Below are positions 1 through 24,601 of a stretch of 32,492 bases of DNA, in pieces. The stretch covers positions 1-32,492 of the forward strand of contig CASDVX010000050.1 of assembly GCA_949284545.1 (NCBI GenBank), in the 5' to 3' direction. The translations under genes and the position numbers were made by a program. A model generated the notes under the pieces. The model saw only the letters and a list, made by a program, of their open reading frames with translations. It was not told the origin of the DNA and did no database searches. Source of the stretch: an uncultured Eubacteriales bacterium (GTDB lineage Bacteria > Bacillota > Clostridia > Oscillospirales > CAJFTT01). How positions within the stretch are numbered: position 1 is the stretch's first letter; each line of letters starts with the position of its first letter.

Positions 1-21
1 CGGCTGTTTTTTGATTTTCTA

Positions 22-49
22 TTGACATCCTCGTTAAAGATGCTATAAT
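22..49 (+). promoter_or_regulatory. Sigma-A-type promoter of tRNA-Pro
   Basis: A perfect -35 box TTGACA and a perfect -10 box TATAAT are separated by 16 nt. The predicted start lies just before the mature tRNA, as expected for a strong stable-RNA promoter. Confidence 0.88.
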
Positions 50-64
50 GAGTTGGTGTCGTTT

Positions 65-141
65 CGGGGTGTAGCTCAGTTTGGTAGAGCGCTTGGTTCG
101 GGACCAAGAGGTCGCGTGTTCGAATCCCGTCACTCCGACCA
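65..141 (+). tRNA. tRNA-Pro (anticodon CGG)
   Basis: A cloverleaf can be folded by eye. The acceptor stem is CGGGGTG with CACTCCG (one G-T pair), the D-arm is GCTC/GAGC, and the anticodon stem CTTGG/CCAAG encloses loop TTCGGGA. This gives anticodon CGG, which reads the proline codon CCG. The T-loop is TTCGAAT and the CCA end is encoded in the DNA. One oddity is that the T-stem GCGTG/CCCGT contains a T-C mismatch at its second pair, so the arm is weaker than usual. In bacteria this isoacceptor is often dispensable because the TGG-anticodon tRNA can read CCG. The gene has its own promoter and terminator, so it is transcribed alone. Confidence 0.95.
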
Positions 142-144
142 AGC

Positions 145-181
145 AGGGCTTGGAGCCAAATCGCGCTCCAAGCCCTTTCTT
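145..181 (+). terminator. Rho-independent terminator of tRNA-Pro
   Basis: A perfect 12-bp stem AGGGCTTGGAGC/GCTCCAAGCCCT with an 8-nt loop is followed by TTCTTTAT, starting four bases after the tRNA CCA end. Confidence 0.9.
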
Positions 182-244
182 TATACCTGAACCCGGGTAC
201 CCGCGTCCATAACGGCATTTTTTAGTTTCGCTTCGCCAGGCATG

Positions 245-276
245 GTCCGGGGCCGATTCGCGCTCCGGACTCTTTT
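245..276 (+). terminator. Second terminator-like hairpin downstream of tRNA-Pro
   Basis: The stem GTCCGGGGC/GCTCCGGAC has nine pairs, one of them G-T, an 8-nt loop and a TCTTTTT tail. No gene ends just upstream of it, so it is either a backup terminator or a duplicated remnant. Confidence 0.6.
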
Positions 277-290
277 TGTCTTCATCAAAA

Positions 291-521
291 TCAAATGTAC
301 CCGCGTTTAAACCGGTGTTTTTGCTGTATCGAGTTCCCATTCAGAAAAATCCGCAGGGGGAAAGAGTAATGTAGAAAGCAGCCTAAATAAGCGACAGCCG
401 CGATGATGCTTAATAGAGTGATATCAATAACAATAAATTTATTGTTTGAGACGGATGGACAATTTCCCAGATGGATACGCAGGCGGTGAACGTCGATCCC
501 AAGCTTGAGAACTATCTGCAT
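291..521 (-). CDS. Possible 76-aa single-span membrane protein (uncertain)
   Basis: I do not recognise this protein. It may be chance, but three things favour a gene. The ATG is preceded at 6 nt by AGGGGG. A promoter-like pair lies upstream on the same strand (boxes TTGGTT and TATTAT, 17-nt spacing). The product has one clear hydrophobic stretch near residues 29-59 (FIVIDITLLSIIAAVAYLGC onward). The stretch is visibly richer in AT than the core genes, like the neighbouring accessory cassette. Against it are the short length, the lack of a recognisable family, and the absence of a good terminator on that strand. It sits alone between the tRNA and the accessory cassette. Confidence 0.28.
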   Translation of the reverse strand: MQIVLKLGIDVHRLRIHLGNCPSVSNNKFIVIDITLLSIIAAVAYLGCFLHYSFPLRIFLNGNSIQQKHRFKRGYI

Positions 522-955
522 AAAGGGCCCCCTGTATTGTTTGTCATTCTCGAAAATGCTGAAGATAGATAATAGATTGTCTTTGGTGCGTAACCAATGA
601 TCCTGGGTTGAATTTCGGTGTTAATTATCGGCGTTAAGTCTCCGCCTATAATTTCGTTTGTGCGTCTTTTTTGTGGCCTCCGACCGGGTCAGAACGCGGT
701 TCGCGTCCCGACTTTTTTGTTAAATGAGTTGTTCGCGCCGGAAGTTTCACACGTTTTCCGTTCCTAACGCATACAGAATACGCATAAAACATTCCCTCGT
801 ATGAGCACTCAATTTTGCTACATATGAGGCGGAGGCATAAAGCTTAGTACTTCCAAAATCAGCAGTTCATGTAAACCTCGCATTCCAACCGATTATCCGG
901 TTTGTTGTGTTTTGTATCTATCGTTAAAAAATGTAAAGTTTCACAAACAACAGTA
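522..955. other. Gene-free lower-GC stretch with a decayed terminator hairpin
   Basis: I see no convincing coding sequence here. At 569-597 there is a minus-strand promoter-like pair (TTGGTT, 17 nt, TATTAT) that could serve the small ORF ending at 291. At 688-718 there is a hairpin GTCAGAACGCG/CGCGTCCCGAC with two mismatches and a TTTTTT tail, which resembles the two hairpins closer to the tRNA. The remainder up to the cassette promoter has no feature I can name. Confidence 0.5.
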
Positions 956-985
956 TTGACATATCTACCATTTTTGTGGTGTAAT
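956..985 (+). promoter_or_regulatory. Promoter of the secreted-protein/ABC cassette
   Basis: A perfect -35 TTGACA is followed after 18 nt by TGTAAT, five of six matches to the -10 consensus. The transcript would start about 30 nt before the first gene's start codon. Confidence 0.68.
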
Positions 986-1022
986 ATGCCCAGAGCTCAA
1001 AGAAATGAACGGAGGTTGTATC

Positions 1023-1421
1023 ATGAAACAAAAAATCGCGATGGCCCTTGTGACGTTATCACTTCTTCTCACTCTCGGTACCGCCCAGGCATTTGCCGGC
1101 AACGAAGCACTTGCGCACGCGGCAGACTTGCACGTTGACCAGCAGATCGTCTATTCAAAAACCTGCGAGGGCACATATAAGATCGGATGGGGCAGAAATT
1201 CGAGTACGTCCAAACACAGGGTCTGGTTTGTTATCGAAACAAAGTCTTCCAGCGGCAATTGGGTTGAAGACCAGAGTGTCCGCAAATTGTTATACGCCGG
1301 TGAATCTTTCGGTGAAACCAGTTCATACAGATACGGCAATTCTCATACATGGCGGATGAAGGTGGATGCTTACGCCTGGAACTGGGATTGTACTGCAACC
1401 GGATATATCCGCAACAAATAA
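1023..1421 (+). CDS. Small secreted protein with two cysteines, first gene of ABC cassette (unknown family)
   Basis: The protein has 132 residues. The start is set by GGAGG seven bases upstream; a slightly earlier ATG in frame overlaps this ribosome binding site and is rejected. It opens with a Sec signal peptide: positively charged MKQK, a hydrophobic core ALVTLSLLLTL, and a likely signal peptidase I site around TAQAFA-G. The mature part of about 100 residues is rich in Trp, Tyr, Ser and Gly and contains only two Cys (KTCEGTY and NWDCTATGY), one near each end, which suggests a disulfide closing a small beta domain. It is the first gene after a strong promoter and is followed by an attenuator, so it should be made in excess over the downstream permease and ATPase. 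That layout resembles lactococcin 972-type bacteriocin loci, but I do not see that family's sequence pattern. Its function is unknown; a secreted effector or ligand of the ABC system is inference. Confidence 0.85.
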   Translation: MKQKIAMALVTLSLLLTLGTAQAFAGNEALAHAADLHVDQQIVYSKTCEGTYKIGWGRNSSTSKHRVWFVIETKSSSGNWVEDQSVRKLLYAGESFGETSSYRYGNSHTWRMKVDAYAWNWDCTATGYIRNK

Positions 1422-1429
1422 ATTTTTCA

Positions 1430-1467
1430 GCAGACTTGTTGCACCGAGCGGCAGGTCTGCATTTTTT
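1430..1467 (+). terminator. Attenuator/terminator between the secreted-protein gene and the permease gene
   Basis: The stem GCAGACTTG/CAGGTCTGC has nine pairs (one G-T), a 13-nt loop and an ATTTTTTA tail. The ribosome binding site AGGGAG of the next gene follows immediately and there is no separate promoter, so partial read-through is the likely mode of expression of the downstream genes. Confidence 0.82.
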
Positions 1468-1482
1468 AGGGAGTATCAAGCT

Positions 1483-3408
1483 ATGAGCATTAACAGAAAG
1501 TATTTCAAGCTGTTTATCAACGACCTGTTTTTACCGTTGATCGCGCTTGCGTTTTTGATATATATAAATTACCTGCACATCAATTGTCTGTCGGTCAACG
1601 ACGGATATTTAATGCTGGGGAAGCTGTCAATGCTGCGCGAATCGCTGCTGACTTCTATTTTATGCTTCGCGTTTTTCCTGTTTGCTTCATATTATTTCAT
1701 TGACAAGGCGCGTCAGGATTCCATGCTGGAATGCATCAGAGCCACAAGCGGCGGGGCAAGGATCGTGTATTTCAGGCAGCTGGGAGTGCTGTTTTGCGTC
1801 GCTTTTTTATTTTACCTGGTATATCTGTTTTACAACCTGTATGCATATTTTGCCTGGAATATAGGCCATTTTGAAGTGCTTGGGCACATTACTATGTGTC
1901 TGTTCGTATACATATTCCTGGTTTCCGCGGCTGCCGTGCTTCTGGGGACTCTTGTTGCCCTGTTTTTCAAGAGACTTGCCGCGTGTCTGATAATGATAAC
2001 GATAATGCTTCTCGTCTCCCCTGTGGCGCTGTATCTTATCGAAGCTACTTTTTACGGATACGGTATAAATCTGTTTTCATTTTACGAATTTATCTGCCTT
2101 TTCCCGCGTGATCTTCAATCCATACCGCTGCACAGCATAGGGTATTCCCTGCTGCCCGACAGGGTGTCCGCCGCCGTATTTTACATCACGCTTTTCCTCA
2201 TTCCTATCATGATCAAGCTCCTGAAAAAACGGTCTGTCGTGAAATACGCCTGCGTCTCACTTTGCGGGGTTATTTGCGCCGCTTCGCTTACGGTATATTT
2301 CCTTCCGGGAGCCCGCACTTTGACACAGGATAATGCCGTCGGCAGCTTTGCAGTCGACAGGCTGTACTATATGGATGAGCATCTCGGCAGCGAAAAAAGC
2401 GAGGACGGCGGATTTTCGGTATTAAAATACGATATGGAGCTGACTGTTAAAAATCAATTGTCGGCGAAAGTGACCATGAGCGTCGACAACCGGTCGCTGG
2501 ACTCCTATAAGTTTACGCTTTACCACGGTTTTATAATAACCGGCGCCGAAAATCAGGACGGCGCGCCCCTGGAATTTACGCAGGACGGCGATTACGTGGA
2601 GGTCAAAAGCTCCGGCGCTCAGATTGCATCAATCACGCTGTATTATGCGGGATATAATCCCACCTACTTTGCCCACAGTCAGGGCATATCCCTTCCCGGC
2701 AATCTTCCCTTCTTTCCGCGCAGCGGTTATCAGGTCGTTTATGACGTGGATGAGCAGGGATTCTACAGTAATTTCCTTGACAAACCGGCCGAATTCCATA
2801 TCCGGGTAAATTACGGGAAGACGGTATATTCCAACTTGGACAGCGTGGGGAACAACACCTTCTCCGGAGTTTCCGACAACTGCGTTTTGGTATCGGGATT
2901 TTTAGATCAAACGGCCGTGGATGGCGTGGAGGTTGTATACCCATATCTTGACGCGGAACAATTCGGGGAAGAAATGCTAAAGGCGGATGTTTTGTCTTTC
3001 CTCAAGTCCAGAGAAGACGATAATCCCATAGAAAAAATAATTATCCTTCCGTATGTGAACATGGGGTCATATGCAAGATGTAACTATTATTCCGACGGCA
3101 CGATAGTATGCCTGCAGCTGAGAACTCTCAGCACCGATTACCCGGTATGCCTTGTGGCTAACGAAAAGCAGGCGCTGTTTGCCCTGTATAATACCTATTT
3201 GAAAAATCATTCCGACTTTGAAAACCGTCTGTCAATCGAGCGTCAGCAATATGAGGCATATCCCGATCTGGAGCCCGGGTTAGCCATTATGATGCAGGAT
3301 GCGATCGACCGTCTGGGAGAGGACGAGGCCTTATCTGCGATCGACTCGTTTGCCCACGACAGGTCCGACAAGCGGAGTTATGAGGAGTTTTTCTCAAGTC
3401 TGCAATAA
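1483..3408 (+). CDS. ABC-2-type permease with C-terminal extracellular M1-peptidase-like domain
   Basis: The protein has 641 residues. The start is the ATG nine bases after AGGGAG; the longer open frame upstream overlaps the previous gene and has no ribosome binding site. The N-terminal 275 residues hold about seven membrane spans (roughly 12-31, 55-73, 100-124, 133-162, 165-187, 229-247, 254-275), as in ABC-2 permeases. The remaining 365 residues follow the last span and should lie outside the membrane. They begin with beta-rich sequence (about 285-480, including the segment ITLYYAGYNPTY and LPGNLPFFPRSGY) that resembles the N-domain seen in permease/M1-aminopeptidase fusions. No HExxH zinc motif is present, so peptidase activity is unlikely and a binding role is more plausible. 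It is followed by its ATPase with overlapping stop and start signals. Membrane topology is well supported; the M1-like assignment is by eye. Confidence 0.85.
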   Translation: MSINRKYFKLFINDLFLPLIALAFLIYINYLHINCLSVNDGYLMLGKLSMLRESLLTSILCFAFFLFASYYFIDKARQDSMLECIRATSGGARIVYFRQLGVLFCVAFLFYLVYLFYNLYAYFAWNIGHFEVLGHITMCLFVYIFLVSAAAVLLGTLVALFFKRLAACLIMITIMLLVSPVALYLIEATFYGYGINLFSFYEFICLFPRDLQSIPLHSIGYSLLPDRVSAAVFYITLFLIPIMIKLLKKRSVVKYACVSLCGVICAASLTVYFLPGARTLTQDNAVGSFAVDRLYYMDEHLGSEKSEDGGFSVLKYDMELTVKNQLSAKVTMSVDNRSLDSYKFTLYHGFIITGAENQDGAPLEFTQDGDYVEVKSSGAQIASITLYYAGYNPTYFAHSQGISLPGNLPFFPRSGYQVVYDVDEQGFYSNFLDKPAEFHIRVNYGKTVYSNLDSVGNNTFSGVSDNCVLVSGFLDQTAVDGVEVVYPYLDAEQFGEEMLKADVLSFLKSREDDNPIEKIIILPYVNMGSYARCNYYSDGTIVCLQLRTLSTDYPVCLVANEKQALFALYNTYLKNHSDFENRLSIERQQYEAYPDLEPGLAIMMQDAIDRLGEDEALSAIDSFAHDRSDKRSYEEFFSSLQ

Positions 3409-3425
3409 TGAAAAAGAGGTTTGTT

Positions 3426-4271
3426 ATGCTGAAAATAGATAATTTAAGCAAGAAATTCGGGAGAAAAAAGGTCATCAATGATCTAAGCATTACTTTTGAA
3501 TCCGGGGTCTACGGTCTGCTGGGGCCCAACGGGGCGGGCAAAACAACCCTTATACGCTGCATCACGCAGCTGTACTCCACGGATCCGGCCGCCATAACGT
3601 TTGACGGCACGCCCGTACAGCGCTCAGACGGCTATTTGTCCCATGTGGGATATCTGCCGCAAAAGTTCGGCCTTTTCCGTGATCTGTCCGTATACGACGC
3701 GATGGCGATGCTGGCCGATATAAAAAGGATACCGCGCGGCGGTATAAAAGATGAGATATACCGGTGTGTGGAATCGGTGAATTTGATTGACAGGATCAAT
3801 TCCAAAGTGAAAACGCTTTCGGGCGGGATGGTAAAGCGTCTGGGGATCGCGCAGGCTCTTTTGGGAGACCCTGAGATACTTATTTTTGACGAGCCGACCG
3901 CCGGTCTCGATCCCGAGGAAAGATTGCGGTTTAAGCTCATCGTATCGAAGCTTGACCGCAGCAAAACAGTTATCATTTCCACACACATAGTGAGCGATAT
4001 CGAAACCACCTGTGACCGCGTCGTTGTTCTTAACAGCGGGAACGTGGATTTCTCCGGCTCCTGCGATGATCTGTGCCGGGTGGCGGCAGGCAAGGTGTAC
4101 GTCGTATCTCAGGAGGATACAAAGACGCTTGGCGGAAGATGTTTTGTGCAGTCGCAATACAGAGACGAGTCGGGGGTCATGTGCAGGATACTTTCCGCGG
4201 ATGAATTGAGTTACGAAAAGGTTTCGCCTACTCTGGAAGACGGATATATGTGTCTGCTCAAGGGGGTATAA
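3426..4271 (+). CDS. ABC transporter ATP-binding protein
   Basis: This 281-residue ATPase subunit powers the two flanking membrane proteins. It shows Walker A GPNGAGKTT (33-41), Q-loop Gln79, signature LSGGM (131-135), Walker B ILIFDE (151-156) with D-loop AGLD, and the H-loop His187 (STHI). The ATP-binding domain covers about residues 1-215; a short tail follows, as in ABC-2 exporters of the CcmA/BcrA type. The start chosen has AGAGG at 6 nt; an in-frame ATG six codons earlier overlaps the permease stop codon but lacks a ribosome binding site. With no substrate-binding protein gene in the cassette, export or a self-protection role fits better than import (inference). Confidence 0.95.
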   Translation: MLKIDNLSKKFGRKKVINDLSITFESGVYGLLGPNGAGKTTLIRCITQLYSTDPAAITFDGTPVQRSDGYLSHVGYLPQKFGLFRDLSVYDAMAMLADIKRIPRGGIKDEIYRCVESVNLIDRINSKVKTLSGGMVKRLGIAQALLGDPEILIFDEPTAGLDPEERLRFKLIVSKLDRSKTVIISTHIVSDIETTCDRVVVLNSGNVDFSGSCDDLCRVAAGKVYVVSQEDTKTLGGRCFVQSQYRDESGVMCRILSADELSYEKVSPTLEDGYMCLLKGV

Positions 4272-4273
4272 GC

Positions 4274-4915
4274 TTGATCTGGCGCCGTATCGCTCTGCAC
4301 CTGAAGTGCCTCCGCTTTTTCTCTTTCGTTCCTCTTATTGTCCTTTTTGTTATTTCTCCGCTTACCTTTATTCCGCTGCTGAATCATTACGGACCGTCGG
4401 ACGCGCTGTACAGTTTTCTCCTTGAATATACCCAGACTGTCTTTCCCTTTTTCTCGGTTTGGTGGATTATATTCATTTCACGCGAGTATATCGAAAGCGA
4501 CGGAAACGAACTGCTCTTTGTTTTTAAGCCGCGGACGCTGCTGCGCGAGTATCTGATTTTATTTGCGGCTTACCTGCTTTGCGCGTTGGTTCTTTACCTT
4601 TTGCTTTTGTCCGTTTTCCCTACCGCACTGCTGGAATATTTCCGCTTGATTTGCATATGCCTGGTTTACTTCGGTATTTCATATGTGCTTATGTATACCA
4701 CAAGCTCCGTACCGCTTACTGTCCTAATCACGCTTGCTTATTCACTTATGGCTATGGCCGTTCCCTCGGAACAGGTAAATGCGGTTTTTTATCTCTCTCT
4801 TCAGCGTTTTGACGGCGATATCCTAAAAACGGTATGTATACCGCAGCTGATAATCGCCTGTGTTTTAATTGCACTCGGTTGTTTTGTAAATAAAAAATAC
4901 ATCAGGTATCGATGA
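4274..4915 (+). CDS. Six-span membrane protein, second ABC-2-like subunit
   Basis: The protein has 213 residues with about six hydrophobic spans (17-36, 53-70, 93-112, 122-141, 146-163, 188-205), the typical count for a half ABC-2 permease. It has no large soluble domain, unlike the 641-residue permease. The best start is a TTG two bases after the ATPase stop, with AGGGGG seven bases before it; a GTG 24 nt upstream is in frame but overlaps the ATPase gene and is less well placed. It probably completes the transporter with the ATPase, but it could instead be an immunity-type protein. I do not recognise a named family. Confidence 0.82.
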   Translation: MIWRRIALHLKCLRFFSFVPLIVLFVISPLTFIPLLNHYGPSDALYSFLLEYTQTVFPFFSVWWIIFISREYIESDGNELLFVFKPRTLLREYLILFAAYLLCALVLYLLLLSVFPTALLEYFRLICICLVYFGISYVLMYTTSSVPLTVLITLAYSLMAMAVPSEQVNAVFYLSLQRFDGDILKTVCIPQLIIACVLIALGCFVNKKYIRYR

Positions 4916-5037
4916 AATTGCGTCTGTGCATTATAGTCAGACTATTGTTCACCACTCGCGGAATTGCCGTTGCGGCGTTTGTTATCCTGCTGAAAAAAGA
5001 CGCGTTTTGCAGTGATGTCCGGCAGAACGCCGGGTAA
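4912..5037 (+). CDS. Possible 41-aa hydrophobic peptide, coupled to the upstream membrane gene
   Basis: Its ATG overlaps the previous stop codon in the classical ATGA arrangement, so ribosomes could reinitiate there. The product begins MKLRLCIIVRLL, has a hydrophobic centre GIAVAAFVILL, then a charged tail with a second Cys. It may be a real small membrane peptide at the end of the cassette or the stump of a longer decayed permease gene. No family is recognised. The cassette terminator follows about 60 nt later, which places it inside the transcript. Confidence 0.38.
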   Translation: MKLRLCIIVRLLFTTRGIAVAAFVILLKKDAFCSDVRQNAG

Positions 5038-5094
5038 ATTTTCAGGCGTGCGGATTTGCACACGTATGCGTTTCCCGTTAGTCCCCCATAAGCC

Positions 5095-5126
5095 GGAAGC
5101 CGTCGCGAAAGCGGCTTCCTTTTTTT
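5095..5126 (+). terminator. Terminator of the ABC cassette
   Basis: A perfect 8-bp stem GGAAGCCG/CGGCTTCC with a 9-nt loop is followed by seven T residues. Confidence 0.9.
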
Positions 5127-5276
5127 GTACCCTTCGCCGTACATCCCTTTGTACAGCATTTCAGACATTTCCCCCGATAGGCTGACGCGCCCGTTTCGAA
5201 AACCGTTTTCCGGTCCCAATCGCTTAAACGGGATAATCGCCGGAGGTTAGCCCATGGCGGCTGCTATAAAGCGCGC

Positions 5277-5305
5277 TTGAAATTTCGCATGAATATGTGT
5301 AAAAT
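5277..5305 (+). promoter_or_regulatory. Promoter of the redox operon
   Basis: Boxes TTGAAA and TAAAAT with ideal 17-nt spacing. It is the best promoter match between the cassette terminator and the flavoprotein gene, and it implies a leader of roughly 460 nt. Confidence 0.6.
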
Positions 5306-5311
5306 ACAGTA

Positions 5312-5762
5312 AGGGGGTCGTACGGTTTCTTATCGAGAGTATGTGCTGAACGGAATATTTTATCGGCTCGCGGCAGATCACGTATGGGGTTTCCTGCTTC
5401 CGTTTTACGGTCTCCGGTGCAGACACACCCCGTTCCGGCCGTATTTGCCGGCTTTTTGTATGTGACAAAGCCGCCGTTGCCCGCGTTGCTGTCGTCTCCA
5501 CGGCGGAGATGGGCAAGTCCGCGCCTTGCCTTATATCAACGCAAGGCCGCGCAAAAGATGCGGCTGTACGGCGTGCATATTATAAAATGCGTTTGCAAAA
5601 GCGGCGGCTGCGGGAACATCGCAGACTTCCAACGGAAAGGCACGCGGCAGGGTCAAACCGCCCGCCGCGGATTACGTGCTCGGCGGAGAGCTTTTCGGGC
5701 ATTAAGCTTGGCGGCGCGGTTCTGGATTGTTCTGGAAATATCAAAGGTTATAAGCGCAAATC
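5312..5762 (+). other. Long untranslated leader of the redox operon
   Basis: No credible gene lies here; the open frame that continues upstream of the flavoprotein start reads as Arg/Pro-rich noise. Two hairpins are visible: a weak terminator-like CCGGC/GCCGG followed by CTTTTT near 5435-5457, and a bulged stem CGCGCCTTGC/GCAAGGCCGCG near 5520-5552. I cannot match it to a known riboswitch. A weak second promoter close to the gene is possible. Confidence 0.4.
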
Positions 5763-5776
5763 AAAGGAGGGGTATT

Positions 5777-7339
5777 ATGGCAAAAGTCAATGAAAAAGCC
5801 TATGACGCGGTGGTCATAGGCGCGGGCAACGGAGGTCTTGTAGCGGCTGTCCGAATACTGCAGGCCGGTTTTTCCTGTCTGCTGCTGGAAAAGCACAACC
5901 TGCCCGGAGGTTTTGCAACCAGCTTCAAAAGAGGTCGTTTCGAATTTGAGGCCAGTCTTCATGAGCTGAATGATTTCGGCTCTCCGCAGGAGCCGGGCGA
6001 CATCCGGGTACTGTTCCGGGAACTCGGGGTGGAAGATAAGATCGATTGGATACGCATACCCGAGGCATATCACATGATAACCACAGACAAAAAGTATGAC
6101 TGCGTGATGCCGTTCGGGGTGAAGGCTTTCACCGACAAAATGGAGGAATACTGTCCGGGATCCCGCAAGTCGGTGACGGAGTTTTTTGAGCTGTGCGAGG
6201 AAGTCCGCGCAGCCCAGACCTATTCCAGCTCCGTGAACGGCAATACGGATTCGGACTACATGAAAAAAACGTTCCCGAACTTTGTCAAGGCCGGAAGCTA
6301 CTCGGTAAACGAGGTGCTTGAGGCGCTGAAAATGCCGCAGAGGGCCAGAGACATCCTTAACGCCTACTGGTGTTATCTGGGTGTGGACTGTGACCGCATG
6401 AGCTTTCTGCATTACGGTTCCATGGTCATCCGGTATATCACCCGTGATGCGTGGATGCCTAAAATGCGTTCTCATGAGATAAGTCTGGCTCTGGACACGC
6501 GCATAAGAGAGCTCGGCGGGGATATCTGGTACCAGTCCGAGGCGGAAACGATTCTGACCGACGACGACGGACGTATCCGCGGGGTACGCTTGACCGACGG
6601 CAAAACTGTCTTAACGCGCCATATTGTCGCCGATTGTTCGCCGCACCTTGTGTTCGGGAAAATGCTGGAAAAGAAGTCCGTCACGGAGCGGATGGTGCGT
6701 GCCACCAACAGCCGCAAATTTTCCGGACGCGGATTTACCATGTTCCTCGGGCTCAACCGTACCGCAGAGGAGCTGGGCATTGCCAGCCATAACTACTTCA
6801 TCTACGATACCGCCGACACGGTGAAGCAATACGACCTGATGAAAAAGGTGGACACGAACCACGTACAGGCCACAGTGTGCCTTAACAAGGCGTATCCGGA
6901 ATGCTCCCCGGCAGGGACCTGCATGATGTATTTTACGACCATGTTCATGTCCGACGATTGGGGAAACGTGACGGAGGAGGAATATTTCAAGGCAAAAGAT
7001 AAGGTCGCCGACGATATGATCCGTGTGTTCGAAAGGGAGACCGGCTGCAAAATAAGGGACTCCATAGAGGAGATATGCGTGGCCTCCCCCACCACGTACG
7101 CGCGCTACTGCGGCCACCCGGAAGGAGTAATTTACGGATACGAAACGGCGGACTGGGACAGTCTGATGCCCAGAATGATGATGATGGGCGAGGATGCTCT
7201 CATGAGCCCGGGGCTGCGTTTCGCGGGCGGCTATGCCATGCGCTCCAGCGGATATTCAAGCGCGTACGTTTCGGGAGATATTTCCGGGCGCCAGACAGCG
7301 GGCGACCTGAAAAAGGAGGGGCATAAAAATGAAATTTAA
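5777..7339 (+). CDS. CrtI/phytoene-desaturase-like FAD-dependent oxidoreductase
   Basis: The protein has 520 residues. The start is fixed by a strong AAAGGAGG seven bases upstream. The N-terminus is a dinucleotide-binding fold with GAGNGG (15-20), the acidic end of strand beta2 at Glu38, and the NLPGGFATSF segment typical of the phytoene desaturase/retinol saturase branch of amine-oxidase-like flavoproteins. The C-terminus carries the matching FAD segment (GLRFAGGYAMRSSGYSSAY). Such enzymes reduce, saturate or isomerise C=C bonds in lipid-like substrates. No carotenoid, isoprenoid or quinone gene is nearby, so the substrate is unknown. The last codons overlap the start of the next gene by 11 nt, so the two are translationally linked and probably act as one electron-transfer system. 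Confidence 0.9.
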   Translation: MAKVNEKAYDAVVIGAGNGGLVAAVRILQAGFSCLLLEKHNLPGGFATSFKRGRFEFEASLHELNDFGSPQEPGDIRVLFRELGVEDKIDWIRIPEAYHMITTDKKYDCVMPFGVKAFTDKMEEYCPGSRKSVTEFFELCEEVRAAQTYSSSVNGNTDSDYMKKTFPNFVKAGSYSVNEVLEALKMPQRARDILNAYWCYLGVDCDRMSFLHYGSMVIRYITRDAWMPKMRSHEISLALDTRIRELGGDIWYQSEAETILTDDDGRIRGVRLTDGKTVLTRHIVADCSPHLVFGKMLEKKSVTERMVRATNSRKFSGRGFTMFLGLNRTAEELGIASHNYFIYDTADTVKQYDLMKKVDTNHVQATVCLNKAYPECSPAGTCMMYFTTMFMSDDWGNVTEEEYFKAKDKVADDMIRVFERETGCKIRDSIEEICVASPTTYARYCGHPEGVIYGYETADWDSLMPRMMMMGEDALMSPGLRFAGGYAMRSSGYSSAYVSGDISGRQTAGDLKKEGHKNEI

Positions 7340-8495
7340 GAAACAGCTTTTCGGGTTCATGGATATGCTGCGTTTCAAAAACATGGTCCCCACGCGCAGG
7401 AGGATGCTGTCCGAGGGATCGGATGCTCCGATAGCGGAAAAGTACCGCACGAATGAATTGGCCAAAAAGTTGCACCCGGGATTCATGCAGGTCGAGCTGA
7501 CCGAGACGCGTCCTCTTACGGACAGCATAACGGAACTGACGTTTTGCAGGACGGACTGCGGGGAATTCCCCTTCTTCCGGGCGGGGCAGTATGTGTCCTT
7601 GCAGGTGAAAATCGGCGGCAGCCTGGTCAGCCGTCCGTATTCGATAGTTTCCTCCCCGAGACAGGCGCTTTCAAACAAGCTGGTGCTTGCCGTTGAGAAC
7701 GCGGGCTTTGTTTCGGAGTATCTGAACAAAGCCGCAAAGGCAGGCGACAGTTTTGTGATGACGGAGCCTTCCGGCGAATTCCATTACGAGGCCCTCAGGG
7801 ACAGCGGAAACATTATATGTGTGGCCGGAGGAAGCGGCATAACTCCGTTTATGTCGATGGCCGGCAGCCTGGCGGACGGGGACGAGGATTTCAGGATGAC
7901 GCTGTTCTACGGTGCGCGCACATACGCGCAGCTCGCTTACAAAAAAGAACTTGACGAAATGTCCGCCCGCTGCGACAGGCTCAGCGTGGTATATGTACTC
8001 AGCGATGAGGACGCTCAGGGCTGTGAACGCGGGTTCGTTTCCGCTGAACTGATTAAAAAATACGCCGATATCGAAGGCAGCACATTTTTCCTGTGCGGGC
8101 CCAAGGCAATGTATGATTTCATAGACGGTGAGCTTGCGCCGTTTAATCTTCCCAGGAAAGCGGTACGCCGCGACGCCTCCTGCTGCGCAGACCTGCAGGA
8201 GGAAAACCCAAAAGAGTTCACGCTGACGGTGCGTATGCGCGACGAGGTGTTCACTCTCACCGCCAAATCCAACGAAACGCTGCTGACGGCAATGGAGCGC
8301 GCGGGGCTTAACGCCCCCAACAAGTGCAGGGCGGGAGGCTGCGGCTTCTGCCACAGCAAGTGGATCTCCGGCGGATATCGTGTCGCGGAGGACAGAGACG
8401 GACGCAGAGAAGCCGACCGCAAGTTCGGATTCATCCATCCCTGCGTCACATATCCTCTGGAAGATATGGAAATAGACGTGCCGCCGGCATACTGA
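7329..8495 (+). CDS. FNR-type NAD(P)H oxidoreductase with C-terminal 2Fe-2S ferredoxin domain
   Basis: The protein has 388 residues and starts after GGAGGGG at the end of the upstream gene. After an N-terminal extension of about 50 residues come the FAD domain with RPYS (102-105), the nucleotide domain with GGSGITPF (167-174) and CGPKAMYDF (from 256), and a plant-type 2Fe-2S domain with Cys333, Cys338, Cys341 and Cys372 (CxxxxCxxC...C). This order is that of phenol-hydroxylase/ferredoxin-reductase type electron suppliers. It should take electrons from NAD(P)H to FAD and the iron-sulfur centre, and the adjacent CrtI-like flavoprotein is the natural acceptor (inference from overlap). The function as a reductase is clear; the pathway is not. 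Confidence 0.93.
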   Translation: MKFKKQLFGFMDMLRFKNMVPTRRRMLSEGSDAPIAEKYRTNELAKKLHPGFMQVELTETRPLTDSITELTFCRTDCGEFPFFRAGQYVSLQVKIGGSLVSRPYSIVSSPRQALSNKLVLAVENAGFVSEYLNKAAKAGDSFVMTEPSGEFHYEALRDSGNIICVAGGSGITPFMSMAGSLADGDEDFRMTLFYGARTYAQLAYKKELDEMSARCDRLSVVYVLSDEDAQGCERGFVSAELIKKYADIEGSTFFLCGPKAMYDFIDGELAPFNLPRKAVRRDASCCADLQEENPKEFTLTVRMRDEVFTLTAKSNETLLTAMERAGLNAPNKCRAGGCGFCHSKWISGGYRVAEDRDGRREADRKFGFIHPCVTYPLEDMEIDVPPAY

Positions 8496-8542
8496 GCGTA
8501 GGCGTTTGCAGCTTTTATCCGCAGTTGTGTTAAGCGGCGACC

Positions 8543-8584
8543 GCGCCGGCGCATATGCATCTGTCCCATGCAAAACACCGGCGC
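8543..8584 (+). other. Stem-loop in the 3' region of the redox operon
   Basis: An outer stem GCGCCGG/CCGGCGC encloses an inner GCAT/ATGC pairing. It has no T-tract. It may protect the 3' end of the mRNA or be incidental. The rest of the 290-nt gap between genes holds only the strong terminator that follows. Confidence 0.35.
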
Positions 8585-8622
8585 CGCCCAAAGGATGGCG
8601 GACAATATCATATTATTATGCA

Positions 8623-8664
8623 AACGGGACCCGGGGGCGGCAGCCGCCCGGGTCCCGTTTTTTA
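8623..8664 (+). terminator. Strong terminator of the redox operon
   Basis: A very GC-rich stem AACGGGACCCGGG...CGG with CCGCCCGGGTCCCGTT (a two-base G bulge) is followed by TTTTATTTAT. It separates this operon from the convergent gerW genes. Confidence 0.9.
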
Positions 8665-8787
8665 TTTATGTAACGAAAATCACGCGCTCTCTTCATGGAT
8701 GCAGGCAAAGGCTCCGTCGTGATTCGGATCTGTTCTGCACCGGATCCCGGACCTCGCGTTTGGCCGCGTCCGGGTGATAAAATTTAA

Positions 8788-9186
8788 TCATTTCTTTTCC
8801 TTGCCGGGTTTTTTTACCAGGTTTTTTATACCGGACACTGCTGCGGCAGCGGCCTCCGCCGCTTTCGAGGGTTTTTCCTCCTCCGCAACGGTCATAAGAT
8901 GTGCGCCGCTGTCATCCATGACTATAAAGGTAACGGGTTCGCGGGAAATTTTTGCGCCGGTACCCGCCGGGTTGCGGCGTTTGCCCTCTTTTTCGTTTAA
9001 TGTGTCCGCGCCGCCTCCGGCAAACCCCACGGATATTTTTGACACCGGTATGATTGCGGTATTCCCGTGTTCTATTTTGTCCCCGACCACAGAGTTTGCG
9101 TCTGCAAGTTCTTTGACCGTTTCAAGCGTATATGAGAGAAGTTCGGCAAAACCGCCGTTTACATATGAGCTTTTTCCGTCCGTCAT
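8788..9186 (-). CDS. gerW: Sporulation/germination protein GerW (YtfJ family)
   Basis: This 132-residue protein belongs to the GerW/YtfJ family, which in Bacillus is made during sporulation and affects spore germination. The hallmarks are the segment VVGDKIEHGNTAIIPVSKIS, a Gly-rich FAGGGAD stretch, and the domain end PVTFIVMDDSGAHLM. The C-terminus is a Lys/Ala-rich tail. Its ATG overlaps the upstream DUF2953 stop codon as ATGA, the usual order in Firmicutes, and both share the promoter further upstream. It marks the organism as a spore-former. Confidence 0.93.
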   Translation of the reverse strand: MTDGKSSYVNGGFAELLSYTLETVKELADANSVVGDKIEHGNTAIIPVSKISVGFAGGGADTLNEKEGKRRNPAGTGAKISREPVTFIVMDDSGAHLMTVAEEEKPSKAAEAAAAAVSGIKNLVKKPGKEKK

Positions 9187-21986: not shown

Positions 21987-23219
21987 TTATTCGCCTGTCC
22001 CCCCCTGTCTGCGCGGGCGTTCGCGCCTCAGGTAGGCCGGGGCCGTCACTTCCCTTCCGAACGGGACACGCACCGTCTGTTCCGGCCTGTTTGCCTTTTC
22101 TTCCGTCCTCCCGTCGTCCGTGAGTATTTCGCCGATCGTCAATGCAAACACCCCCTCAGGGGATAACAGCTCCAGTTTGTCTCCTTTTGCAAACGGGTTT
22201 TTGACTCTGCAGGTCAGGCATCCGTCGCCGCTGCCGTATACCTCGGCAGATATCTCATAATCCCGTATGTAAGCGCTGTCGGAGTATTCCTGCCCGTCGC
22301 CTCCGTCGCCGAAAAGGAACCCCGTGCAGTATCTCCGGTGGCTCACCTTGCATACTTCTTCCAGCAGCGCCCGGTCAAATGGGTTCCCCGCTGCCATATC
22401 GTCTATGGCGCGCCTGTAAGCTCCGGTGACTGTAGCAACATAGAAAGGGGTCTTTACCCTTCCCTCAATTTTGAAGCTGCTCACTCCGGCTTCCGCAAGC
22501 CTGTCCAGATGCTCTATAAGGCAAAGGTCCTTAGAGTTAAATATATATGTCCCGCCGTCCTCATAAACCGGATAGTATTCGCCCGGTCGCTTTTCCTCAA
22601 CCAACGCATATTTCCACCTGCACGGCTGCGCGCACTCGCCCCTGTTTGAGTCTCGTGACGCCATATAATTTGACAGCAGACAGCGCCCGGAATACGACAC
22701 GCACATTGAGCCGTGGACAAAAACCTCGGTCTCTGTCTCAGGCGGCAGTTTATCGTTGATTTGGGCAATCTCGTCGATACTCAGTTCCCGCGCCAGAACC
22801 AGGCGTTTCGCCCCCATGTCCGCAAGGGCGGCAGCCGTCTCGTAGTTGACTATTCCCGTCTGCGTGGACATATGTATCGCCGTATGCGGCGCATATTTCT
22901 GCGCAAGTCGCATCACACCTATGTCTGCTATTATGAATGCGTCAACGCCCGCCTGACCGGCAAAGGAAATAAAGCGCTCCATTTCGCCTATATCGCCGTT
23001 GCGCGGAGTAGCGTTGAGGGTAAGATAGAGCTTCTTCCCCCTGCTGTGGACATATTCGCAGGCCCGCGCCAGCTCGTCCTCGGTAAAATTTCGGCTGGCG
23101 GCGCGCAACCCGAACATCGGGCCGCCGGCATACACTGCGTCTGCCCCGAAAGCTTCCGCCGCAATCAGCTTGTCAAAATCGCCCGCCGGAGCAAGGAGTT
23201 CCGGCTTTGATGAATTCAT
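21987..23219 (-). CDS. U32 family protein (TrhP/RlhA-like RNA hydroxylation factor)
   Basis: The protein has 410 residues and starts with ELLAPAGDFDKLIAAEAFGADAVY split by family-typical spacing. It contains the U32 four-Cys motif CVSYSGRC...GECAQPC, which in characterised members binds iron-sulfur, and SFKIEGRVKTPFYVATVTGAY. In Bacillus related proteins (YrrN/YrrO, TrhP) hydroxylate tRNA wobble uridine, and they follow mltG there with a methyltransferase gene between. Here the U32 gene follows mltG directly, its ATG overlapping the mltG stop (TAATG), and the methyltransferase is absent. The name peptidase U32 is historical; protease activity is not expected. Confidence 0.9.
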   Translation of the reverse strand: MNSSKPELLAPAGDFDKLIAAEAFGADAVYAGGPMFGLRAASRNFTEDELARACEYVHSRGKKLYLTLNATPRNGDIGEMERFISFAGQAGVDAFIIADIGVMRLAQKYAPHTAIHMSTQTGIVNYETAAALADMGAKRLVLARELSIDEIAQINDKLPPETETEVFVHGSMCVSYSGRCLLSNYMASRDSNRGECAQPCRWKYALVEEKRPGEYYPVYEDGGTYIFNSKDLCLIEHLDRLAEAGVSSFKIEGRVKTPFYVATVTGAYRRAIDDMAAGNPFDRALLEEVCKVSHRRYCTGFLFGDGGDGQEYSDSAYIRDYEISAEVYGSGDGCLTCRVKNPFAKGDKLELLSPEGVFALTIGEILTDDGRTEEKANRPEQTVRVPFGREVTAPAYLRRERPRRQGGTGE

Positions 23220-24601
23220 TAAGACACCCCTTCGCCTATACCGACTCCGTTTTTGCGGATGCTGTTTACCTGCTTTTCGTGCTGTGATGCCGTTTCCGAG
23301 AAGTAGAACAGGTTGTTTTCATCCGTAACAAAGAAGTAGTAATCGTTTTCATCCGGATACAGCACCGCCTTTATCGCCTGAAGGCCCGGGTTGCATATGG
23401 CGCTTGGGGGAAGACCCTCGTGGACATAGGTGTTATACGGATCCGGGTTTTCAAGATCATCCTCGTCCATCCAGAGTATGGGTTCCCCCAAAGCGTACGA
23501 AAGAGTGGCGTTTGACTGCAGGTACGGGTATTTTGAAGGATTGTCAAGCCTGTTGCGGAAAACTCCCGCCACCATCTGCATGGTTTTCTCCGAAGCGCCC
23601 TCTTCCTGAACCATCGACGCGAGTATCACAACCTCCTCTACCGTCATGCCCTGAGCCTCGGCCTCGTCGCGCAGTTCCTGGCTGAACCTCACCTCAAAAT
23701 TATCAAGGAATTTCCTGATCACCGTATCCGCGTCGGAGCCCTTGTAAAAATCATAGGTGTCGGGGAAAATATACCCCTCCATTTTATATATTCTGTCCTC
23801 ATTTTCCGGGATCGCCGCTATGAAATCATAATCACTGTAGTCGTTGTTTTCAAGCGCGGTCGTAAATTCCAACGCCGTGCACACCTGGCTGGATTCAAGT
23901 TTCTGCGCTATTTCGTCTATCGTCCACCCTTCGATTATTGTGACTTTCACGGTCTCAAGCGAAACGCTCTGCTGAGCCAGCGCCTTTAGAAGCTCGTGAT
24001 ACCCCATTCTCGGGTTGAGCGTAAAAGTCCCCTGATGATAGGTGTAGTCCAGTCCCGCGAGCTTCGCAAACGCCAGCAGCCCTATCTCGTTGTCGATAAG
24101 GCCGTTATCCTTGAGTATCTTGGCTATATCCGTAAGGCTCGCGCCCTTAGGTATCTCCACTGTTATCTCAACGTCATCCTTGACAAGCCCCGTAACGTCA
24201 TTCACCACGGTCAGTGCAAATATTGCGAGACCTATGGACAGCGCTATTACCAAAACAAGGTACACAGCGCCGCTGAGGCAGCCCGCTCCGCGTTTGCGGG
24301 GTTTTCTTTTTTTCCCCTTTTCCAGTTCAAAATCGTATACCACCTGGCCGGACTCCACATAGTCCGGTATGGCATCTTCAGCCGCCGAAACATCCACCTC
24401 AAAATGTTTAGCGTTTTTTTCACCGTCGGCACTGCCCGTAACCGGTTCTTCCGCTGCAGATGCCTCCGGGATTTCAGATGAGCCCTCCGCCGCACCGGTT
24501 TTATTTGAAACAGGGCCGGGAGCATGACTGTCCTGCACTTTTTCGTATGTCTCATCCTCCGGAAGCTTTTCGGAAAATCCGCCCTTGAAATCTTCTGTCA
24601 T
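23219..24601 (-). CDS. mltG: Endolytic transglycosylase MltG (YceG-like)
   Basis: The protein has 460 residues, longer than the E. coli enzyme because of an acidic, disordered cytoplasmic N-terminus of about 105 residues. A single span lies at about 110-135. The extracellular part begins with a LysM-like EIPKGASLTDIAKILKDNGLI and continues into the YceG domain with VTIIEGWTIDEIA, GYIFPDTYDF, and ASMVQEEGA, where Glu334 matches the catalytic Glu. The C-terminal part keeps LPPSAICNPGLQAIKA. MltG cuts nascent glycan strands and sets their length. It heads a group with the U32 protein and an L,D-transpeptidase. Confidence 0.95.
   Translation of the reverse strand: MTEDFKGGFSEKLPEDETYEKVQDSHAPGPVSNKTGAAEGSSEIPEASAAEEPVTGSADGEKNAKHFEVDVSAAEDAIPDYVESGQVVYDFELEKGKKRKPRKRGAGCLSGAVYLVLVIALSIGLAIFALTVVNDVTGLVKDDVEITVEIPKGASLTDIAKILKDNGLIDNEIGLLAFAKLAGLDYTYHQGTFTLNPRMGYHELLKALAQQSVSLETVKVTIIEGWTIDEIAQKLESSQVCTALEFTTALENNDYSDYDFIAAIPENEDRIYKMEGYIFPDTYDFYKGSDADTVIRKFLDNFEVRFSQELRDEAEAQGMTVEEVVILASMVQEEGASEKTMQMVAGVFRNRLDNPSKYPYLQSNATLSYALGEPILWMDEDDLENPDPYNTYVHEGLPPSAICNPGLQAIKAVLYPDENDYYFFVTDENNLFYFSETASQHEKQVNSIRKNGVGIGEGVS

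What the first reader, a model, noticed from the sequence alone, without database searches (positions are those of the whole stretch)
956..5126. Self-contained secreted-protein/ABC cassette next to a tRNA gene, possible new bacteriocin-like or self-protection system
Seen: a promoter, a Sec-secreted 132-aa protein whose mature part has two Cys, an attenuator hairpin, a 641-aa permease with a large extracellular domain, an ATPase, a six-span membrane protein, a possible 41-aa peptide, and a terminator. The gene order recalls lactococcin 972-type loci (secreted peptide, large membrane protein, ATPase), but neither the secreted protein nor the permease shows that family's sequence pattern as far as I can read. 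The block is visibly richer in AT than the housekeeping genes and lies downstream of a tRNA, which suggests acquisition. That the peptide is an effector exported or sensed by this ABC system is inference.
Basis: partly seen in the sequence, partly recalled or inferred. Interest (0 to 1): 0.72.

Follow-up and report, generated by a model that had tools for sequence, protein, structure and literature searches.

The report
Secreted protein with pseudo-peptidase ABC transporter
A bacterial operon that makes a small exported protein together with a dedicated, apparently undescribed ATP-driven membrane machine recurs across many Firmicutes and their plasmids, and looks like an uncharacterised way to attack neighbours while protecting oneself, although the function is not yet proven.

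Summary
In detail: promoter, Sec-type 132-aa protein, strong attenuator hairpin, 641-aa permease, ATPase, small membrane protein and terminator form one operon (956-5119). The 41-aa ORF has no support. It is a real, conserved system without a Pfam or NCBIfam name except for the ATPase. Homologous operons occur patchily in Clostridia-type genomes (13 of 398), Bacilli (35 of 299) and Bacillaceae/Planococcaceae plasmids. A secreted small protein lies directly upstream of 24 of 47 permeases (8 of 183 control genes). In Bacilli all 20 strong matches to the small-protein profile sit upstream of a permease. The hairpin between the two genes recurs in 17 of 23 loci (background 13 of 300). The permease is a NosY-like ABC-2 channel fused to a catalytically dead M1-aminopeptidase-like ectodomain (Z 15-17). 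Relatives neighbour agr quorum-sensing genes, ECF sigma/anti-sigma pairs or, in Bacilli, a phospholipase-A2-like protein. Transporters persist where the small gene is absent or broken, not the reverse, which fits an immunity-like role. Best reading: secreted effector plus dedicated self-protection transporter (about 0.5). It works like a lactococcin-972 locus but fails that family's sequence tests. Acquisition at the tRNA is not shown. Function untested.

The parts
956..985 (+). sigma-A-type promoter TTGACA-18-TGTAAT
   Evidence: direct reading of the sequence; not listed by the strict scan
1023..1421 (+). Sec-secreted small protein, 132 aa; signal peptide about residues 1-25, mature all-beta domain about 107 aa, Cys48 and Cys123
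   Evidence: ORF; homologues L039, L045, L046, L051, L029, L033, L028; AlphaFold2 model all-beta, pLDDT 72
1430..1460 (+). attenuator-type hairpin followed by a T-tract, between secreted gene and transporter genes
   Evidence: 13 pairs, -22.1 kcal/mol, z -4.0; comparable hairpins in 17 of 23 homologous loci
1483..3408 (+). ABC-2-type permease, 641 aa: NosY-like membrane domain (residues 1-249) plus degenerate M1-aminopeptidase-like ectodomain (302-641)
   Evidence: AlphaFold2 pLDDT 86, pTM 0.84; Foldseek and VIA-align; no HEXXH
3408..4271 (+). ABC ATPase, 287 aa (possible start also at 3426)
   Evidence: Pfam ABC_tran E 1.2e-28
4250..4915 (+). small polytopic membrane protein (probable start TTG 4274, 213 aa), likely second membrane subunit of the transporter
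   Evidence: hydropathy; conserved third transporter gene in nearly all full loci
5095..5119 (+). intrinsic terminator
   Evidence: 9-pair stem plus T7

Best explanation
The operon encodes a Sec-secreted small beta-sandwich effector protein (bacteriocin-like, acting outside the cell) and a dedicated ABC machine that protects the producer from it. The effector is made in excess because a terminator-like hairpin after its gene lets only part of the transcripts run on into the transporter genes. The transporter pairs a permease and a small membrane subunit with an ATPase. The permease carries a dead M1-aminopeptidase-like domain on the cell surface, which I propose captures the secreted protein, or what it does to the envelope, and uses ATP-driven movement to push it off. 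Shown by computation: the gene set, its conservation, the hairpin, the predicted folds, the linkage, and the loss of the peptidase motif. Inferred: effector activity, binding by the ectodomain, transcript attenuation and the protective direction of the transporter.
For: Small protein and permease travel together: secreted ORF directly upstream in 24 of 47 non-redundant permeases against 8 of 183 control genes (Fisher 3e-13; phylogeny not corrected). In Bacilli, of 20 strong small-protein matches 19 lie 41-585 nt upstream of a permease on the same strand, and the last lies about 118 nt upstream of a permease fragment at a locus edge; two of these and a weak one (G604) were not used to build the profile. 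Small-protein and permease similarities correlate over 24 loci (Mantel r 0.36, 0 of 2000 permutations). The asymmetry is immunity-like: transporters without the small gene are common, including plasmids L007, L010, L011 and G001, and open permeases follow broken small genes (G550:C161, G627). Conserved attenuator. Agr quorum-sensing genes beside it in L028, L041, L045, L050, L055, with LytTR regulators in L051 and L054. ECF sigma/anti-sigma neighbours. Plasmid carriage. A PLA2-like protein with invariant CCxxHDxCY beside it in 7 Bacilli loci.
Against: No antimicrobial activity or immunity is known for any member. The small protein does not evolve faster than the permease ectodomain in the pairs compared, so no arms-race signature is seen. 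Many transporters lack a secreted partner, so the ABC may have another substrate. The small-protein fold is generic (best Z 9). The own genome has no detected AgrB. About half of the permeases analysed lacked a detectable small gene.
Confidence: 0.5

Rival explanations
1. Resistance or envelope-stress module: the ABC machine removes foreign antimicrobials or damaged lipids, and the secreted protein is a decoy, sensor or helper rather than a weapon.
For: ECF sigma/anti-sigma pairs, some of the Sigma_reg_N/C type, next to several loci; transporter-only loci common; ATPase resembles resistance-type ABC ATPases.
Against: Agr quorum-sensing neighbours and a PLA2-like protein fit production better than resistance; the attenuator would make the small protein the major product.
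Confidence: 0.22
2. Surface-assembly or maturation system: the transporter extracts, places or finishes the secreted protein (or a lipid) on the cell or spore surface, as NosDFY acts on an extracytoplasmic partner.
For: NosY-like membrane domain (Z 17); small-protein model resembles jelly-roll domains that include endospore-appendage subunits (Z 7.8-8.2, generic); tight linkage.
Against: Transporters persist where the small gene is lost or broken; patchy and plasmid-borne distribution; agr linkage.
Confidence: 0.18
3. A divergent true member of the lactococcin-972 family.
For: Same order of parts: Sec-secreted small beta protein, large membrane protein, ATPase; scbABC-type loci are also under peptide-signal control and occur as BC-only variants (PMC11796350).
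Against: No hit of the small protein or permease to any Pfam or NCBIfam model at E 1; ATPase scores 117 bits against TIGR03608, cut-off 254.85; a fourth gene and a pseudo-M1 ectodomain.
Confidence: 0.05
4. Chance neighbours: an orphan secreted protein beside an unrelated ABC operon.
For: Only about half of the permeases have the partner.
Against: Linkage in many genera, in all strong Bacilli matches, with a conserved hairpin between.
Confidence: 0.02

Closest known systems
Lactococcin 972 / streptococcin B (scbABC) loci
   Same: Sec-secreted small beta-sandwich protein followed by a large membrane protein and an ABC ATPase; peptide-signal control; variants keeping only the transporter genes; B and C functions unproven there too (PMC11796350)
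   Different: No sequence match of the small protein or permease to those families; extra membrane subunit; pseudo-M1 ectodomain; attenuator; agr or ECF sigma neighbours in relatives
NosDFY ABC transporter (NosY permease)
   Same: Membrane domain of the permease matches NosY (Z 17, 230 residues, rmsd 3.6)
   Different: No NosD partner seen; large ectodomain fused to the permease; no nitrous-oxide genes noted nearby
M1 zinc aminopeptidases (e.g. 6a8z, LTA4 hydrolase, ERAP1)
   Same: Ectodomain residues 302-641 match over about 310 residues (Z 15-17; Foldseek E 3e-9)
   Different: Catalytic HEXXH and GxMEN absent; anchored to an ABC permease
DUF6147 secreted proteins (PF19644)
   Same: Small secreted proteins that can sit beside ECF sigma factors and, in L046, beside this cassette
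   Different: Near-threshold similarity only (E 9e-4); the other one seen (L100) has no transporter beside it

Membership tests
Lactococcin 972 bacteriocin system | structural protein matches the family profile | tested here: not met
   hmmscan of the small protein against Pfam-A and NCBIfam: 0 families at E 1
Lactococcin 972 bacteriocin system | family-specific large membrane protein | tested here: not met
   permease: 0 families in Pfam and NCBIfam; structure is NosY-like domain plus pseudo-M1
Lactococcin 972 bacteriocin system | ATPase of TIGR03608 (L_ocin_972_ABC) | tested here: not met
   117.1 bits against a cut-off of 254.85; other ABC families score higher
Lactococcin 972 bacteriocin system | Sec-secreted small beta-sandwich protein | tested here: inconclusive
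   signal peptide by reading; model all-beta but only pLDDT 72; topology not compared with Lcn972
Lactococcin 972 bacteriocin system | antibacterial activity | not testable with these tools
   needs an assay
ABC-2-type transporter | ABC ATPase plus NosY-type membrane domain | tested here: met
   ABC_tran E 1.2e-28; NosY Z 17
M1 aminopeptidase (active enzyme) | M1 fold in the ectodomain | tested here: met
   Foldseek E 3e-9, VIA Z 15-17 over about 310 residues
M1 aminopeptidase (active enzyme) | HEXXH zinc motif and GxMEN | tested here: not met
   absent from the window; in 60 permeases one HEPVH (L113) and one GAME (L036) only
agr quorum-sensing-controlled locus | AgrB/AgrC/LytTR genes adjacent | tested here: not met
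   present at several relatives but not seen in the window; no AgrB found in the own genome, 94% complete
mobile island integrated at a tRNA | direct repeat of the tRNA end and an integrase | tested here: not met
   no direct repeat of 16 bases or more in 1-6000; no integrase noted by reading ORFs of 1-9000; sequence before the tRNA is cut off by the contig end

The most novel reading that the evidence does not exclude
A previously unrecognised, widespread antagonism and self-protection system of Bacillota: a secreted beta-sandwich effector, controlled in many carriers by agr peptide signalling or ECF sigma factors, is neutralised at the producer's surface by an ABC machine whose receptor is a dead M1 aminopeptidase; Bacilli versions add a phospholipase-A2-like second effector.
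Probability: 0.35. Interest if true: 0.75.

Novelty: new variant of a known kind. Interest (0 to 1): 0.6.

Why it matters
If right, a whole family of secreted proteins and their dedicated transporters, now mostly annotated 'hypothetical protein', becomes a testable interbacterial weapon and immunity system. It would be a case of a peptidase fold recruited as a surface receptor on an ABC transporter. Culturable carriers (Priestia plasmids, Geobacillus, Syntrophomonas zehnderi, Eubacterium oxidoreducens) make it testable at once. It also bears on an open question, whether ABC genes in Sec-secreted bacteriocin loci give immunity, which is unproven even for lactococcin-972 loci (PMC11796350).

Tried and rejected
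Pfam, NCBIfam, PADLOC and PHROGs scans of the secreted protein, permease and small membrane protein gave no usable name. PDB sequence search with profiles gave only chance hits. The fold search of the small protein gave only common jelly-roll/beta-sandwich matches, none below Foldseek E 1e-3; lactococcin 972 was not among the rows shown, which excludes nothing. No relatives in phage records or, with two peptide patterns, in the viral contig collection. A lactococcin-972 exporter was suspected for the 620-630-aa protein plus divergent ATPase upstream in L117-L119, but NCBIfam and Pfam do not support it and the permease profile does not match it. The 41-aa peptide: no homologue. Island boundaries at the tRNA: no repeats. 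Two scans with an over-diverse alignment failed. No paper describing the permease type was found in the held library.

Full report
What is there. Between a sigma-A-type promoter (956-985) and an intrinsic terminator (5095-5119) lie four same-strand genes: a Sec-secreted 132-aa protein (1023-1421), a 641-aa permease (1483-3408), an ABC ATPase (3408-4271) and a small membrane protein (4250-4915; homologues suggest TTG 4274 as start). A 13-pair hairpin with a T-tract (1430-1460, -22.1 kcal/mol, z -4.0) separates the first gene from the rest. The 41-aa ORF has no relatives. Only the ATPase matches a known family.

It is a recurring system. The permease finds relatives on Priestia, Halobacillus, Geobacillus, Parageobacillus and Planococcus plasmids, in the only other genome of its family (G001, 47% identity), in 13 of 398 genomes drawn from the phylum, in 35 of 299 Bacilli genomes, and in 17 named contigs including Syntrophomonas zehnderi and Eubacterium oxidoreducens. 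The order permease, ATPase, small membrane protein is constant in nearly all complete loci; L052/L053 lack the ATPase next to the permease, and more distant permeases (L036-L038) have other orders.

The secreted partner. Directly upstream of the permease lies a same-strand ORF with a signal peptide in 24 of 47 non-redundant cases, against 8 of 183 control genes in the same loci (Fisher 3e-13; relatedness not corrected). Further loci have it in other positions: between permease and ATPase (L012), divergent (L004), or with a start my filter missed (L033). The Clostridia and Bacilli small proteins look related by profile comparison (hhalign probability 93%, E 2.7e-7 for the pair, 83 columns, part of it signal peptide), so homology across the two groups is likely, not certain. 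In 398 genomes all five strong matches to the Clostridia profile sit beside a permease, but all five were rows of the profile; the point is that nothing strong lies elsewhere. The next match, at E 9e-4, is a DUF6147-like protein. In 299 Bacilli genomes all 20 matches at E below 1e-6 lie just upstream of a permease: 19 by listed coordinates (41-585 nt), one by a permease fragment at the edge of L116. G539:C2, G694 and the weak G604 match were not in the profile. Similarities of small protein and permease correlate across 24 loci (Mantel r 0.36, 0 of 2000).

Asymmetry. Transporters without the small gene are common (G001; plasmids L007, L010, L011), and some open permease genes follow broken small genes (G550:C161 with stops or truncation, G627). 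No strong small-protein match stood without a transporter. This is the pattern expected of an effector that needs its immunity gene; it argues against a transporter whose only job is to export that protein, which anyway has its own Sec signal. It does not exclude that partnerless transporters belong to subfamilies with other substrates.

Structure. The permease model is good (pLDDT 86, pTM 0.84). Residues 1-249 match NosY of the NosDFY transporter (Z 17, rmsd 3.6, 230 residues), and 302-641 match M1 zinc aminopeptidases over about 310 residues (Z 15-17; Foldseek E 3e-9). The zinc motif HEXXH and GxMEN are missing: among 60 permeases only one HEPVH (L113) and one GAME (L036) turned up. The ectodomain is therefore a pseudo-peptidase, a natural receptor candidate. 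The small protein is predicted all-beta (pLDDT 72) with only generic jelly-roll matches. Its C-terminal Cys123 is invariant in the Clostridia group, Cys48 is not.

Expression. A terminator-like hairpin stands between small gene and permease in 17 of 23 loci (energy -8 kcal/mol or lower) against 13 of 300 random pieces of the same loci. Several relatives lie beside agr quorum-sensing genes (AgrB in L028, L041, L045, L050, L055; GHKL kinase and LytTR regulator in L028 and L055; LytTR in L051, L054), others beside ECF sigma/anti-sigma pairs (L046, L035, L004, L006). Neither is seen in the window, and no AgrB was found in the own genome.

Bacilli extension. Seven Bacilli loci carry a roughly 250-aa protein with invariant CCxxHDxCY-type and GGYxxCG motifs; two of them were scanned and weakly match Pfam phospholipase A2 models, below the curated cut-offs. 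The four strongest matches in 299 genomes (below 1e-80) lie within about 5 kb of a cassette permease; three of these were profile rows. By my reading of the list, genomes with a long-form protein carry the cassette in 7 of 10 cases against 28 of 289 others. Short PLA2-like proteins are widespread without it.

Interpretation. The parts work like a lactococcin-972 locus: Sec-secreted beta protein, large membrane protein, ATPase, peptide-signal control, transporter-only variants (PMC11796350). But the sequence-based membership tests fail, so it is not filed there. I commit to effector plus self-protection transporter at about 0.5. Rivals are a resistance/stress module (0.22) and surface assembly (0.18). 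Points against: no arms-race signature, partnerless transporters, and no experiment on any member.

Acquisition. Lower GC and patchy occurrence suggest horizontal movement of the family, but no repeat was found around the tRNA-Pro, which lies 815 nt from the promoter, and no integrase was noted among the nearby ORFs.

Noticed in passing
L012 8398-9156; L005 7698-8438; L106 2597-3355; L108 5562-6323 (-); L109 5314-6021 (-); L123 8282-9061; L124 3394-4140: About 250-aa proteins with a long N-terminal part and a Cys-rich phospholipase-A2-like domain (CCxxHDxCY, GGYxxCG) next to the cassette in Bacilli; no NCBIfam name; function unknown.
   Followed up: partly
L046 4531-5001; L100 3550-3948: DUF6147-like secreted proteins beside ECF sigma/anti-sigma genes, near-threshold similarity to the cassette's small protein; DUF6147 may be a wider relative.
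   Followed up: partly
L117 5683-8174, L118 5510-8043, L119 4865-7410 (all -): A second unnamed pair (620-630-aa membrane-type protein and a divergent ABC ATPase) upstream of the small gene in one Bacilli clade; matches neither lactococcin-972 families nor the permease profile.
   Followed up: partly
L045 19-9465: Near-identical tandem duplication of the transporter genes, with AgrB and response-regulator genes between the copies.
   Followed up: no
L005, L012, L124 (plasmids): Sigma-70 family factor, YvrJ-family protein, S8 peptidase and glutaredoxin recur near the cassette on Bacillaceae plasmids, possibly a dedicated SigO-like regulon.
   Followed up: no
L036-L038: More distant permeases (L036 with a weak Peptidase_M1_N match) sit with one or two ABC ATPases and no secreted gene: a broader ABC / M1-like family.
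   Followed up: no
window 21987-24601 and L008 8722-11577: A peptidase U32 gene lies 17 kb from the cassette in the window; in the sister genome G001 a gene that reads like a U32 peptidase (not tested) lies immediately upstream of the cassette: loosely shared neighbourhood.
   Followed up: no
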